Below are positions 21,590 to 26,336 of a stretch of 64,000 bases of DNA, in pieces; the stretch's first letter is position 1, and every line of letters begins with the position of its first letter. Source of the stretch: Nostoc carneum NIES-2107 (GTDB lineage: Bacteria; Cyanobacteriota; Cyanobacteriia; Cyanobacteriales; Nostocaceae); contig AP018180.1 of NCBI GenBank assembly GCA_002368155.1, positions 1,955,947 to 2,019,946 of the forward strand, in the 5' to 3' direction. The position numbers were made by a program, and so were the translations under genes. The notes beneath the pieces are model-generated. The model saw only the letters and a program-made list of their open reading frames with translations. It did not search any database and was not told where the DNA came from.

Positions 21590-22390
21590 TCATAATGCGT
21601 CATCACCAGACCACTGAGCAACTACACGTAAGCCTAATTCTTCTAATAGAATCCGGCTAGCCCAAGCATCACCACCGATGTTGTAGTCACCAATAATAGC
21701 TACGTCATAAGGAGTAGAGTCGAAAGGCAGTGTACCGTCTTTCTTAGCTTGGTCGGCTCTGGGGAATACCCAGTCACGAATTTGGTCGTTAGCAATGTGG
21801 TGACCCAAGGACTGAGAAACACCACGGAAGCCTTCGCAACGTACAGGAATAACAGGCTTGTTAATTTCTTTAGCTGCTTTCTTAGCTACTGCTTCGATGT
21901 CATCCCCAATCAAACCAATGGGACATTCAGATTGAATAGAAACACCACGGCTGAGGGGGAACAGTACTTCGAGTTCTTGAATCAGCTTTAAGAGTTTTTT
22001 GTCACCACCGAAAACGATGTCTCTTTCTTGGAAGTCGGAGGTGAAGTGCATGGTACCAAAGGTATCAACACCAGTTGTACCAATGTAGTAGTTACGACGA
22101 CCAGACCAAGACCAGTAACCGCAACCTACAGGCCCGTGGCTGATGTGGATCATGTCCTTAATAGGGCCCCAAACCACACCTTTTGAACCTGCATAAGCAC
22201 AACCACGAGCGGTCATTACACCAGGTAGAGATTTGATGTTAGACTTAACGCCGCAGTCAGACTTGCCTTCTTCGTATACATTTAAGTGCTTTTCCCGTTT
22301 TTTAGCTGCTTTTTCGGGATAGGCTTGGAGAACTTCTTTAATTAGTTCTTTTCTTTCGTCAACGATATTCTTGTTTTCTGGAGGAGTCAT
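21590..22390 (-). CDS. nifD: nifD 5' part, nitrogenase MoFe protein alpha chain, interrupted
   Basis: 266 codons with normal NifD sequence: FeMo-cofactor and P-cluster ligand regions including the Cys in [11 protein letters not shown] (P-cluster), RGCAYAG and [21 protein letters not shown] and [13 protein letters not shown]. The last residues after WSGD (DAL, stop) come from the inserted element. The rest of nifD should lie beyond the left edge, on the far side of the element. Together with NifK it reduces N2. It is 151 bp downstream of nifH in the same direction, as in other Nostocales. Confidence 0.95.
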
Positions 22391-22541: not shown

Positions 22542-23300
<759 letters not shown>

Positions 23301-23330: not shown

Positions 23331-24698
23331 ATGCGGGTAGGTTACGTCCGAGTATCCACAAGAGAACAGGCAGATACAGACGCACTCGAACAGCAAACAG
23401 CCCGGATTGAAAAGGCTGGGGCTGTTTTGATTTTTTCAGATGTTGAGTCTGGAAGGTCAGATAAACGCACAGAATTTAATAAAATGCTGACCATGTGCAA
23501 GCAAGGGAAAATAACAGAAATTGTGATTACTCGCATAGACCGTTTAGCACGGAGTGTAATCACGATCCATCGCACCCTTGTAGCATTGGAAGAGTATGGA
23601 GTTAAGTTAGTAGTTCTTGATGCCCCAGTTGACCCATCATCGCCTTTTGGATGGTTCTCTGTGAATCAAATGGCAGGCTTGGCTGAATTTGAATCGAGAT
23701 TACTTTCAGATCGAATTCGGCATGGATTAAATTACTTCCGAGAACAGAAGAAAGCCAGTCCCCGTCCGCCATTCGGGTATCAGAGACTAAATGAGAAATA
23801 TGCACCAGATATGACATTGCATGAATCAGGTAAATCTAAATGGGCGATCGCATCTGATATCATTGATTATTTCTTATCTGACAACGCCACATTAAGAAGT
23901 ACCGCAGTTTATATACTAAATACTTACGGAATTTCATGGACAGCAGCTGGATTGAAGTATTGGCTAACTAGCCCAGTATTAAGAGGGCATACTGCTTACA
24001 ACATGCGAGGTAATCTCAACAAACCTGAAAAGTGGGAGGTATATCAAGACACTCATGAGCCGCTACTTTCTCATGAGAAATTTAAACATATAGAGAAAAA
24101 ATTGGCAGAGAACCGACATAAGTATAGTTACGGCAACAACAAAAATAGTACTCAAGAGGAATTACCCTTATTAGGACAAATCATTTGTGGTGACTGTGGT
24201 TATCAATGCTTTTGTAAAAAAACAAAGTGGTCAACTCATAGAGTTAGATGCAAAAAACATGAAAATCTAGGAGATGCTTTCTGTAAGAATAAAACTAGTA
24301 CGTACCTGCCAGATATTATTTCAGTTGTAGATACTGCTTTAGCTGCTCGGTATGAAGAAGTTAAGAACTACACTCTTGAGAGTATTGAAGTTCCGGCAGA
24401 TAGTCCAGAACTCACTACCAGATACGAACAATTGAAAATGCTACGGCAGATGCCCCAAAACCCGATTATTCAATCAGCTATTGACCAAACGTTGCTGGAG
24501 ATTCAAACAATCAAACAAAGAGAAGTTGCTACTATCCAAATCAATGTTGCATTGGTACGTACTTTGTCCACCTGCTTTGGTAACAGGAAATATTGGGAAA
24601 GCTTGAGCAGCAAGGATAAGAGAGCAATTTACCAAGAATTAGTTGAAAATGTCACTGTTTTGAATGGGGAAGTACTAGGGGTGAAGCTGCTGGTATAA
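23331..24698 (+). CDS. large serine recombinase of the nifH element (XisF-like)
   Basis: 455 residues. The N-terminal resolvase domain has YVRVSTREQ with the catalytic Ser9, and the Arg residues of TRIDRLARS. Then a recombinase domain (PRPPFGYQRL) and a zinc ribbon (CGDCGYQCFCKK...C...C near 285-330) and a coiled-coil tail. It is somewhat shorter than XisF (514 residues) but has the same layout. It starts 40 bp inside the border and reads inward, so excision would separate it from any promoter lying in antisense nifH. Its job is to excise the nifH element. Confidence 0.92.
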   Translation: MRVGYVRVSTREQADTDALEQQTARIEKAGAVLIFSDVESGRSDKRTEFNKMLTMCKQGKITEIVITRIDRLARSVITIHRTLVALEEYGVKLVVLDAPVDPSSPFGWFSVNQMAGLAEFESRLLSDRIRHGLNYFREQKKASPRPPFGYQRLNEKYAPDMTLHESGKSKWAIASDIIDYFLSDNATLRSTAVYILNTYGISWTAAGLKYWLTSPVLRGHTAYNMRGNLNKPEKWEVYQDTHEPLLSHEKFKHIEKKLAENRHKYSYGNNKNSTQEELPLLGQIICGDCGYQCFCKKTKWSTHRVRCKKHENLGDAFCKNKTSTYLPDIISVVDTALAARYEEVKNYTLESIEVPADSPELTTRYEQLKMLRQMPQNPIIQSAIDQTLLEIQTIKQREVATIQINVALVRTLSTCFGNRKYWESLSSKDKRAIYQELVENVTVLNGEVLGVKLLV

Positions 24699-25231: not shown

Positions 25232-25963
25232 ATGAAACTAAACCAAGCGATCGCAGTTATTCAAACTATTAAAGAAGATTCTCGCAAGCGTCGGACAGAG
25301 ATTTACCAAAAAGCGCAGAAAGAAGGGTTGTTTGCTGGATTGTCGAGAACCTACCAGCCAAGGGAGGATGACGGATTTGTTTACCCTTCAGAATCTCAGA
25401 CATTGCAATTTAAGGCTGAAGACTTATTAAGAGAGTACGAACAAGCAGCCAAGGACTTGTTTAACTTTGCAGCTACTCAAGACTGGGGGAACGTCACAGC
25501 TAAGGCTGATGTTGTTGTGGGAGAGACAACAATTGTGCGGGATGTTCCAGTAACTTATCTATTGTTCTTGGAGAAACAGATAGAAGACTTGCGATCGCTA
25601 ATATCCAAGCTTCCTACCCTTGATATCTCAGAAGAATGGCAATTTGATGCACAAAGAGACTGCTGGGTGACTTTACCTAAATCGACAACCAAAACCAAGC
25701 AAGTGGTTAAGCCTGTGGTATTCTACGAAGCAACAAAGGAACACCCGGCACAAGTAAAGGAAGTGTCAGAGCAGGTTCCAGAAGGGACTTGGACAACAAT
25801 TAAGCTATCAGGTGCATTGCCAGCGTCCAGAGTTAAGCAACTCAAGGAAAGGCTGGATGCACTAGAGCGAGCAATTATCTTTGCTAGAGAACAGGCTAAT
25901 TCCATAGATGTTACAAAACAAAATGTTAGCGATCCGATTTTTGGTTATTTGTTTGCACCTTAA
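25232..25963 (+). CDS. DUF7873-like protein, encoded just upstream of tRNA-like RNAs
   Basis: 243 residues. It matches from memory a family of unknown function found in actinobacteria and their phages (MKLNQAIAVIQ, then FAGLSRTYQPREDDG, ATQDWGNVTAKADVVV, VPVTYLLFLEKQIEDLR, KLPTLD, VVFYEATKEHPAQVK, WTTIKLSGALPASR). It is all-alpha/beta with a C-terminal helical part, no signal peptide and no catalytic motif that I can name. The stop is 9 bp before the first of two permuted tRNA-like RNAs, and a terminator follows them, so gene and RNAs are probably one transcript. That suggests it binds or processes these RNAs. Family name moderately sure; function unknown. Confidence 0.7.
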   Translation: MKLNQAIAVIQTIKEDSRKRRTEIYQKAQKEGLFAGLSRTYQPREDDGFVYPSESQTLQFKAEDLLREYEQAAKDLFNFAATQDWGNVTAKADVVVGETTIVRDVPVTYLLFLEKQIEDLRSLISKLPTLDISEEWQFDAQRDCWVTLPKSTTKTKQVVKPVVFYEATKEHPAQVKEVSEQVPEGTWTTIKLSGALPASRVKQLKERLDALERAIIFAREQANSIDVTKQNVSDPIFGYLFAP

Positions 25964-25971
25964 GTCATAAT

Positions 25972-26113
25972 GAAACTGGAGTACAGTTTTAGATTTAAAT
26001 AAGGATGCTTCTGTAGGTGCAAATCCTACCCCTCGGACGTAACCGAGGGTAGCCAAATAGTAAAGGCCATCCTCTAAAGCTCAAAATCAGGCTTAGATTA
26101 TTACTCCAGTTTT
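25972..26113 (+). ncRNA. permuted tRNA-like RNA 1 (Y RNA/YrlA-like)
   Basis: An outer helix AAACTGGAGTA (25973-25983) / TACTCCAGTTT (26102-26112) encloses a tRNA-like module with swapped halves. In order: anticodon-stem 3' strand AGGATG (26002-26007), 5-nt variable loop, T-arm GTAGG-TGCAAAT-CCTAC (26013-26029), acceptor 3' strand CCCTCGG, loop ACGTAA, acceptor 5' strand CCGAGGG (26043-26049), TA, D-arm GCC...GGC (26052-26067), and anticodon-stem 5' strand CATCCT (26068-26073). All stems pair perfectly and match tRNA lengths. Bacterial YrlA RNAs, partners of Ro60/Rsr, are known tRNA mimics held on a basal helix; this fits, but no Rsr gene is seen here. Confidence 0.75.
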
Positions 26114-26137
26114 CATGTAAGCCACGTCTGCCAGTAT

Positions 26138-26271
26138 CACTCGTTTTGGTCAGTGCTATTGCAACACGGGTTCAAATCCCGTCTCCCGCTCCAAAACTTG
26201 CGGGAGTAGTCTAGCGGAAAGGCGGCAAAGCGTAAGGTTGAACCATTGCGAACGGAAATCAAAAGACTGTG
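26138..26271 (+). ncRNA. permuted tRNA-like RNA 2 with encoded CCA
   Basis: A second module of the same type, 24 bp after the first. Anticodon-stem strand GCTATTGC (26155-26162, one bulged A) pairs with GCAAAGC (26225-26231). T-arm ACGGG-TTCAAAT-CCCGT (26166-26182) has the canonical T-loop. Acceptor strands CTCCCGC (26183-26189) and GCGGGAG (26200-26206) are joined by TCCAAAACTT, so a discriminator plus CCA is encoded in the loop. TA, then D-arm GTC...GGC with GG in its loop. A basal helix TCGTTTTGGT / ATCAAAAGA (26141-26150 / 26258-26266) closes it. It could be a Y-like RNA or a permuted tRNA precursor. Confidence 0.7.
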
Positions 26272-26294
26272 TGGGGCGGAAAATACATAACCTG

Positions 26295-26336
26295 ACCCCG
26301 GAGTAAGGATATCGCTCTGGGGTTTTAAAATTTTTA
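26295..26336 (+). terminator. intrinsic terminator after the tRNA-like RNAs
   Basis: ACCCCGGAG (26295-26303) pairs with CTCTGGGGT (26315-26323), 9 bp with one G-U, followed by TTTTAAAATTTTT. Confidence 0.75.

What the first reader, a model, noticed from the sequence alone, without database searches (positions are those of the whole stretch)
25232..26336. DUF7873-like gene followed by two permuted tRNA-like RNAs: possible new RNA-protein system
Two modules in tandem each contain a T-arm, 7-bp acceptor stem, D-arm and anticodon stem at tRNA spacing, but with the 3' half before the 5' half and the acceptor strands joined by a short loop. Each is closed by a basal helix. This is seen directly by perfect pairing (for example CCCTCGG/CCGAGGG, AGGATG/CATCCT, CTCCCGC/GCGGGAG). 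Bacterial Y RNAs (YrlA) that work with Ro60/Rsr mimic tRNA in this general way. Here no Ro60 gene is seen; a DUF7873-like gene stops 9 bp upstream and a terminator follows the RNAs. Inference: the protein is a partner or processor of these RNAs, and it rides on an excision element.
Basis: partly seen in the sequence, partly recalled or inferred. Interest (0 to 1): 0.92.

Follow-up and report, generated by a model that had tools for sequence, protein, structure and literature searches.

The report
Phage-borne double permuted tRNA-like RNA
Next to a gene of unknown function sits an unclassified RNA that imitates two tRNAs with their halves in swapped order; the gene and the RNA travel together through phages and bacteria, which points to an undescribed RNA-protein machine.

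Summary
Window 25232-25963 encodes a DUF7873 protein; an RNA with two circularly permuted tRNA-like modules follows (about 25970-26325). The pairing is widespread. Two or more modules lie downstream in 132 of 196 DUF7873 loci, against 6-9 of 196 in three controls. In 40 actinobacterial homologues 97% of cells pair, with two-sided changes at 33 of 71 pairs (7-11 when slid). The RNA is in 29 of 30 genomes with DUF7873 against 1 of 165 without, and in 71 of 72 against 1 of 75 in an actinobacterial sample. Phages carry the same pair, often among tRNA genes, and bacterial proteins nest inside phage diversity.

It shares the permuted body of the Y RNA YrlA but fails the other tests: Rfam stays below threshold, the Ro60 motif is rare, and Ro60 is absent from 17 of 29 DUF7873 genomes or records. 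The window's own genome has Ro60, with other tRNA-like RNAs. DUF7873 models well (pLDDT 92) without a solved-structure match. Best reading: a tRNA-mimic ribonucleoprotein of phage origin that works like Ro60-YrlA. Expression, binding and function are untested.

The parts
25232..25963 (+). DUF7873 protein gene (243 aa)
   Evidence: Pfam PF25283, E 2.2e-95, 319.5 bits; AlphaFold model mean pLDDT 92.4
25970..26325 (+). proposed single structured RNA with two permuted tRNA-like modules (ends not mapped)
   Evidence: homologous RNA downstream of DUF7873 elsewhere; covariation in actinobacterial homologues
25972..26114 (+). module 1 with its outer helix (25972-25983 with 26101-26114)
   Evidence: fold z -5.2; coordinates; homologous basal helix in A3 (helix 1, 92.5% of cells paired, no pair changed on both sides)
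26002..26073 (+). module 1 tRNA-like core: anticodon 3' strand 26002-26007, T-arm 26013-26029, acceptor 26030-26036/26043-26049, D-arm 26052-26067, anticodon 5' strand 26068-26073
   Evidence: partial match of module 2 model R1 at 26013-26067, 16.9 bits
26101..26291 (+). module 2 with closing helices, as matched full length by covariance model R1
   Evidence: 113.7 bits, E 7e-22 and 113.6 bits; the window's own copy (L003) was in the training set, so this score is partly by construction
26159..26228 (+). module 2 tRNA-like core: TTGC 26159-26162 with GCAA 26225-26228, T-arm 26166-26182, acceptor 26183-26189/26200-26206 with encoded TCCA 26190-26193, D-arm 26209-26223
26127..26280 (+). closing helix of module 2: TCTGCC 26127-26132 with GGGGCGGA 26273-26280
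   Evidence: read from the sequence; taken as the counterpart of ACCGCC/GGGCGGT in homologues; several R1 closing pairs are non-standard in the window
26296..26322 (+). terminator-like hairpin CCCCGGAG ... CTCTGGGG followed by TTTTAAAATTTTT
   Evidence: fold; similar hairpins after homologues; not listed by the stricter scan

Best explanation
DUF7873 and the RNA form one two-component module. The RNA is a single transcript of about 330-360 nt with two tRNA-shaped arms. In each arm the 3' half precedes the 5' half, so the acceptor stem is capped by a loop and the arm is open where a tRNA has its anticodon loop; there it continues into a conserved core that joins the two arms. By analogy with the Ro60-YrlA particle, I infer that DUF7873 binds the core and that the arms engage enzymes that recognise tRNA bodies (processing, modification or decay enzymes, or tRNA-directed nucleases). 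The module is mainly a phage cargo, often in tRNA gene arrays, that bacteria have taken over more than once. Shown: the structure, its conservation, the near-obligate co-occurrence in two samples, the phage context. Inferred: that it is one transcript, binding, the partners of the arms, and a role in tRNA handling or in defence against attack on tRNA.
For: Two-sided changes at 33 of 71 pairs in 40 actinobacterial RNAs, 97.0% of cells paired against 38.9-51.1% when slid. The non-permuted alternative (module 1 acceptor 5' strand with module 2 acceptor 3' strand) is paired in only 61.4% of cells, one position in 0 of 40. Co-occurrence: 29 of 30 genomes with DUF7873 carry the RNA against 1 of 165 without, adjacent in 28 of 29, Fisher p 3e-32; 71 of 72 against 1 of 75 in an actinobacterial order. 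Model R1, trained on bacterial loci only, matches at E <= 1e-6 in 81 of 88 phage or viral loci, near-identical copies counted. No other gene family recurs in more than 8 of 80 bacterial loci, apart from a reading frame that overlaps DUF7873 on the other strand. tRNA genes lie in the fetched stretch of 39 of 80 viral, 7 of 10 GenBank (9 phage, 1 plasmid) and 10 of 80 bacterial loci. Tree: bacterial rows lie inside phage diversity, 9 label changes, at least 2 forced by starred branches. The 73rd base differs by module: A in 95 of 125 module 1 copies, U in 106 of 125 module 2 copies.
Against: No expression or binding data. DUF7873 is slightly acidic (median pI 6.2, net charge -2 over 84 proteins), unusual for an RNA binder. 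No solved-structure match supports an RNA-binding fold. Outer helices diverge in the window's own clade and in distant phages; R1 matches L067, L069 and L231 only weakly, L063 only at a distant place (E 0.011), and L178, L179 and L204 not at all. In G043 gene and RNA lie on different contigs; G115 and G303 have the RNA without the gene, G032 and G243 the gene without the RNA. The tRNA-like core alone is not diagnostic: core-only R1 matches also occur at Ro60 loci (E down to 2e-7) and elsewhere, 90 of 195 genomes having some match at E <= 0.001.
Confidence: 0.5

Rival explanations
1. A chargeable, processed RNA: RNase P and 3' enzymes open the acceptor loops, leaving pieces with CCA ends held together by base pairing, as in permuted tmRNA; the arms are aminoacylated or bind EF-Tu.
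For: The base after the discriminator is C in 107 of 125 module 1 and 114 of 125 module 2 copies, CCA is encoded in 45 and 42 of 125, and the discriminator is module-specific. Rfam permuted tmRNA aligns weakly to the same T-acceptor-loop stretch (13.6 and 19.3 bits, threshold 47).
Against: CCA is not kept in most copies; 15 of 125 module 1 loops are only 4-5 nt, discriminator included, too small to process into free ends; no tag reading frame was recognised by eye (none was searched for systematically).
Confidence: 0.18
2. A decoy or bait against host defences that attack tRNA, presented by DUF7873.
For: Location in phage tRNA arrays. Phage tRNAs can counter tRNA cleavage (established knowledge, recalled); PMC7824862 (passages) treats RNA repair in such conflicts; PMC7790460 (passages) proposes that YrlA's tRNA-like domain may inhibit an anticodon nuclease.
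Against: The anticodon loop, the usual target, is missing; 72 of 147 genomes of a Streptomyces-order sample carry the gene; of three proteins scanned against PADLOC only a Vibrio phage homologue gave a weak match (KwaB, E 4.6e-4).
Confidence: 0.17
3. A 3' untranslated element that controls or stabilises the DUF7873 mRNA in cis.
For: The RNA lies downstream of the gene in nearly all loci seen; in the window its outer helix starts 8 nt after the stop codon.
Against: Gene and RNA are separable: different contigs in G043, RNA without gene in G115 and G303, opposite strand in L165, about 200 nt apart in L007 and L008.
Confidence: 0.08
4. A divergent member of the Ro60-associated Y RNAs (YrlA).
For: YrlA has the same permuted order of T-arm, capped acceptor and D-arm; sub-threshold Rfam matches of 24.5-37.1 bits at the RNA in 8 of 10 loci.
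Against: The gathering score is 69 bits; no match in L003 (the window's copy) or L020 up to E 1 nor in the window up to E 10; the second alignment shown leaves much of the Ro60-side stem unmatched; GTTATC is in 8 of 125 RNAs (GTTAT[CT] in 21) and GGCCGA in 4 of 125; Ro60 is absent from 17 of 29 DUF7873 genomes or records, 8 of 9 phages; no significant co-occurrence with Ro60 (p 0.10 in both samples).
Confidence: 0.05
5. Decayed tandem tRNA genes without function.
For: A permuted order is what the junction of two tandem tRNAs looks like; phage tRNA arrays are a frequent setting.
Against: Covariation, conserved helices outside the tRNA bodies, and near-obligate pairing with one gene.
Confidence: 0.02

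Closest known systems
Bacterial Y RNA YrlA (Rfam RF02553) with Ro60/Rsr
   Same: tRNA-like body in permuted order (T-arm, loop-capped acceptor, D-arm) extended by a helix at the anticodon position; non-coding; found next to a dedicated protein gene.
   Different: Two modules joined by a conserved core; the Ro60 motif is rare; partner gene is DUF7873, whose model has no match to solved structures; Ro60 is absent from 17 of 29 genomes or records; below the Rfam threshold.
Permuted (two-piece) tmRNA, Rfam RF04321
   Same: 3' tRNA half before 5' half, spacer in the acceptor arm, CCA encoded in a minority of copies.
   Different: Two modules, each with D-arm and anticodon stem; no tag frame recognised by eye; only weak sub-threshold alignment; no consistent G3-U70 alanine signal by eye.
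GOLLD and other large RNAs of phage tRNA arrays
   Same: Structured RNA in phage-derived tRNA clusters (GOLLD: PMC9569102, passages).
   Different: No Rfam match to GOLLD in the window or in the 10 loci scanned.
Circularly permuted tRNA genes of algae and archaea (recalled; two paper searches gave only listings or nothing)
   Same: Halves in swapped order with a spacer between the acceptor strands.
   Different: Those yield normal tRNAs after splicing (recalled); here the anticodon ends run into conserved helices.
Pfam DUF7873 (PF25283)
   Same: The protein is a clear member.
   Different: Family of unknown function with no paper in the library searched; the RNA beside it is in no family that I could find.

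Membership tests
DUF7873 (PF25283) | profile match above the curated cut-off over most of the protein | tested here: met
   319.5 bits against 27, residues 2-241
YrlA / bacterial Y RNA | match to Rfam RF02553 at the gathering score | tested here: not met
   window none up to E 10; at the RNA of 8 of 10 loci 24.5-37.1 bits against 69, none in the other 2
YrlA / bacterial Y RNA | permuted tRNA-like body with T-arm, capped acceptor stem and D-arm | tested here: met
YrlA / bacterial Y RNA | Ro60-binding stem motif (GGCCGA ... GUUAUC; motif recalled) | tested here: not met
   GTTATC in 8 of 125, GGCCGA in 4 of 125 RNAs
YrlA / bacterial Y RNA | Ro60 (TROVE) gene present in the genome | tested here: not met
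   present in 12 of 29 DUF7873 genomes or records, 1 of 9 phages; the window's own genome has one, about 670 kb away, so not met for the family, met in this genome
YrlA / bacterial Y RNA | binds Ro60 and tethers PNPase | not testable with these tools
   needs pull-down
permuted tmRNA | Rfam RF04321 gathering score | tested here: not met
   13.6 and 19.3 bits against 47
permuted tmRNA | tag reading frame and alanine acceptor identity | not tested
   only looked at by eye
functional tRNA gene | recognised by ARAGORN or by the Rfam tRNA model | tested here: not met
   window: 0 genes, no Rfam hit at gathering score
one covarying RNA family linked to DUF7873 | compensatory changes and linkage across lineages | tested here: met
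   the covariation count was made on actinobacterial RNAs only

The most novel reading that the evidence does not exclude
DUF7873 and its double tRNA-like RNA are an undescribed ribonucleoprotein system, evolved in phages from tandem tRNA genes, that interferes with or supervises the host's tRNA-handling machinery and has been domesticated repeatedly by cyanobacteria and actinobacteria: a second, independent invention of the Ro60-Y RNA principle with an unrelated protein.
Probability: 0.42. Interest if true: 0.93.

Novelty: categorically new. Interest (0 to 1): 0.86.

Why it matters
A gene and structured RNA found together in about half of a Streptomyces-order sample (71 of 147), 15% of a cyanobacterial sample (29 of 195) and many large phages match no Rfam family at threshold and no paper that I could find, and the protein, of confident predicted structure, has no match among solved structures at E <= 0.001. 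The nearest precedent, YrlA, suggests how such an RNA could work, so the question what phages gain from a tRNA look-alike becomes directly testable in non-pathogenic Streptomyces and in laboratory actinobacteriophages.

Tried and rejected
Rfam: no family reaches threshold in the window; permissive matches are weak, the tRNA-like ones among them. Y RNA membership rejected. Non-permuted tRNA with a long anticodon insert, the arrangement I read at Ro60 loci, rejected for this RNA by pair counts. Decayed tandem tRNAs rejected by covariation. Function through protein similarity: no PHROG, NCBIfam or PADLOC match for the window protein (the Vibrio phage homologue L067 has weak PHROG and KwaB matches), only marginal sequence matches in the PDB (best E 0.022), no Foldseek match at E <= 0.001 in PDB or BFVD; in BFVD the best E is 1.8e-3, and unnamed or uncharacterised phage proteins reach probability 0.98 (A0A2H5BQ40 of Vibrio phage Vp_R1, TM 0.54 by its own length), not followed up. 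Conserved neighbours as a clue: none in more than 8 of 80 loci. Linkage to the serine recombinase: not found in 11 cyanobacterial loci, L072-L082. A promoter just before the RNA was not found in the window. Aminoacyl identity: acceptor pairs looked at by eye vary; not counted. A module 1 alignment (A5) was made but no model was built from it. Papers: nine searches gave no description of this RNA or of DUF7873 (listings and starts of abstracts only, plus passages of four papers); the primary Y RNA papers are not held, so their content is known here only through citing papers and recall.

Selection to bear in mind: the sequences of A3 were picked by a detector that demands T-stem and acceptor pairing, so helices 4, 5, 11 and 12 are favoured by selection; the other nine were not, and they hold 20 of the 33 pairs with two-sided changes. 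A3 holds 40 of the 41 actinobacterial RNAs left after a redundancy filter; L103 was dropped because its module 1 was mis-detected. R1 was trained on 31 sequences, at least nine of them from genomes of the cyanobacterial sample and at least one (L138) from the actinobacterial one. In one search I counted only full-length matches at E <= 1e-14, a line drawn after seeing the list; three weaker full-length matches (G104, G121, G008) and many core-only ones exist, 90 of 195 genomes having some match at E <= 0.001. The centre motif was widened after a narrower form missed actinobacteria (1 of 48). L220 was left out, and four of 200 loci with under 450 nt downstream out. Adjacency of gene and RNA was computed for the cyanobacterial sample only.

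None of these moved the odds.

Full report
WHAT IS THERE. The ORF at 25232-25963 is a DUF7873 protein (PF25283, 319.5 bits). ARAGORN, and Rfam at the gathering score, find nothing in the window. Module 1 folds better than all 200 shuffles (z -5.2); module 2 alone does not stand out (17 of 200 shuffles as good), so folding energy alone would not have settled it.

IT IS CONSERVED. DUF7873 is in 30 of 195 genomes of the same order; I read the DNA after the gene in all 30 loci. The arrangement recurs with very different stem sequences in most; it was not seen after the gene in L014 (its RNA is on another contig) or after the 45-residue fragment L032. Genes broken by stops or truncation (L028, L030, L031) still have the RNA nearby. 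tblastn finds DUF7873 in 73 of 50,697 phage records and 4 of 72,556 plasmid records. A simple detector (T-arm, 7-bp acceptor with a capping loop, then U and a purine) found at least one module downstream in 181 and at least two in 132 of 196 loci with enough sequence. The controls had at least one in 42 (upstream), 39 (shuffled) and 65 (reverse strand), and at least two in 9, 6 and 7 of 196.

STRUCTURE. In 40 actinobacterial RNAs (A3) a 71-pair structure with 13 helices is paired in 97.0% of cells; sliding the partners gives 38.9-51.1%. Thirty-three pairs show changes on both sides (7-11 when slid), and the covariation score is 0.287 against 0.057-0.077. Twenty of the 33 lie in helices that played no part in choosing the sequences. 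The basal helix of module 1 has no two-sided change and its anticodon stem only one. The spacing is that of a tRNA by reading of the alignment: 7-bp acceptor, two bases, D-arm, one base, anticodon stem, variable region of about 3-6 nt, T-arm. The opposite, non-permuted pairing fails (61.4% of cells, one position 0 of 40). Helices outside the tRNA bodies and a proposed pseudoknot tie both modules into one RNA; the pseudoknot pairs hardly vary in A3, so it rests on a few unlike cyanobacterial cases read by eye (L005 and L020), while L018, L021 and L024 did not show it clearly. A centre motif T[CT][AG]CTC[CT]A is in 23 of 25 cyanobacterial, 45 of 48 actinobacterial and 25 of 52 viral RNAs, against 4% of shuffles.

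LINKAGE. Covariance model R1 of module 2 was built from 18 actinobacterial and 13 cyanobacterial copies. It matches at E <= 1e-6 in 81 of 88 phage or viral loci, none of them in training and some near-identical to each other; L165 has it on the opposite strand; L067, L069 and L231 are weak, L063 has only a distant match, L178, L179 and L204 none. In the 195-genome sample, full-length matches at E <= 1e-14 occur in 30 genomes, 29 of which are among the 30 with DUF7873; gene and RNA lie within 2.5 kb in 28 of the 29. The exceptions are G032 (gene fragment, no RNA), G115 (RNA, no gene) and G043 (different contigs). In an actinobacterial order sample of 147 genomes, 72 have the gene, 72 the RNA at E <= 1e-10, 71 both (G243 gene only, G303 RNA only). 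Ro60 shows no such tie: it is in 11 of 30 and 44 of 72 genomes with the gene (p 0.10 each). Core-only R1 matches are common elsewhere, including Ro60 loci, so only full-length matches were counted.

PHAGE CONTEXT. In GenBank phages of Gordonia, Arthrobacter, Rhodococcus, Rhizobium and Vibrio tRNA genes lie around or just after the gene, and an unannotated stretch after it holds the RNA or a weaker likeness of it; the Klebsiella phage has two tRNA genes about 3.3 kb downstream. No tRNA is annotated within 4 kb in the Pseudanabaena and Microcoleus phages. ARAGORN finds tRNA genes in 39 of 80 viral, 7 of 10 GenBank (nine phage, one plasmid) and 10 of 80 bacterial loci. A tree of 110 proteins places bacterial rows inside phage diversity, with 9 label changes (5-95% range 6-9; at least 2 forced by starred branches); cyanobacterial rows fall into two separate groups; the bootstrap had not settled, many forks are open and three branches are long. 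No other gene family recurs in more than 8 of 80 bacterial loci, except a reading frame that overlaps DUF7873 on the other strand.

PROTEIN. An 84-sequence alignment gave a model of mean pLDDT 92.4, pTM 0.69; two of the five models scored above 91, three 72-74. Foldseek finds nothing at E <= 0.001 in the PDB or in predicted viral structures; a few uncharacterised phage proteins come near in the latter. Sequence profiles find nothing firm. The proteins are slightly acidic.

HOW IT MAY WORK. YrlA is described as a stem that holds Rsr/Ro60 plus a tRNA-like domain that is modified by TruB and DusA and binds PNPase (PMC8394870, passages), and the domain has been proposed to inhibit a tRNA nuclease (PMC7790460, passages). 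The new RNA has the same topology twice, so the same kind of work is the most economical guess: DUF7873 holds the core and the arms present two different tRNA faces, one with A73 (95 of 125) and one with U73 (106 of 125). Whether the acceptor loops are opened is undecided: the base after position 73 is C in 107 and 114 of 125, CCA is encoded in 45 and 42 of 125, but 15 module 1 loops are only 4-5 nt. Origin: a permuted module is what the junction of two tandem tRNA genes looks like, so birth in a phage tRNA array is plausible (inference).

KNOWN OR NEW. It is not a YrlA by Rfam score (24.5-37.1 bits in 8 of 10 loci against 69), by motif or by partner; works-like is kept, membership is not. The Ro60 loci of this order hold a different thing: tandem tRNA-like units in normal order with a Y-type stem in the anticodon arm, read by eye in three loci. 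Nine literature searches found no description (listed under tried and rejected); the library lacks most subscription papers and all bioRxiv preprints, so prior description elsewhere cannot be excluded. I rate it categorically new because I could match neither the RNA family, nor the protein's fold, nor their pairing to a described system, while the tRNA-mimic principle has the YrlA precedent; a stricter judge could call it a new variant of tRNA-mimic RNPs.

Noticed in passing
G000:C1:1310888-1311769 (L001 2480-3195, minus strand): Upstream of the Ro60 gene in the window's own genome lie tandem tRNA-like units in normal order whose anticodon arm carries a Y-type stem (GGCCGA ... GUUAUCG; motif recalled); similar arrays at Ro60 loci L042 and L055. 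Units there score over the Rfam tRNA threshold; YrlA matches at such loci stay under theirs.
   Followed up: partly
window 22542-58840: nifH is split: C-terminal part at 22542-23282 (minus), N-terminal part near 58.8 kb (minus), with a serine recombinase at 23331-24698; an element of about 35 kb that holds the DUF7873-RNA pair.
   Followed up: partly
window 21590-22390: The nifD-like frame is only 266 aa and may be cut by another element.
   Followed up: no
Deinobacterium chartae (control genome): The only one of 14 control genomes with DUF7873 is also the only one with Ro60.
   Followed up: no
L028, L030, L031, L032: DUF7873 genes broken by stops or truncated; the RNA is still nearby in the first three, so the RNA may outlive the gene.
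   Followed up: no
L063 downstream of 4738: In the Microcoleus phage the stretch after the gene reads as a tRNA-like unit in normal order rather than permuted (by eye).
   Followed up: no
L007, L008, L028, L120: Insertions tolerated inside the RNA: long stretches in the module 1 acceptor loop (L007, L008, L028) and a hairpin in the D-loop (L120).
   Followed up: no
L067 3995-4747: The Vibrio phage homologue shows a weak PADLOC match to KwaB (E 4.6e-4), and its RNA stretch seems to have one module only (by eye).
   Followed up: no
L069 / W06 (Rhizobium phage RHph_TM21B): This phage carries both a Ro60 gene (113.4-114.1 kb) and DUF7873 (107.5-108.3 kb) about 5 kb apart, by a tRNA array.
   Followed up: no
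L065 2063-2591: Gordonia phage Phendrix carries a tmRNA in the same array (Rfam, 89 bits) that the record does not annotate in the stretch shown.
   Followed up: no
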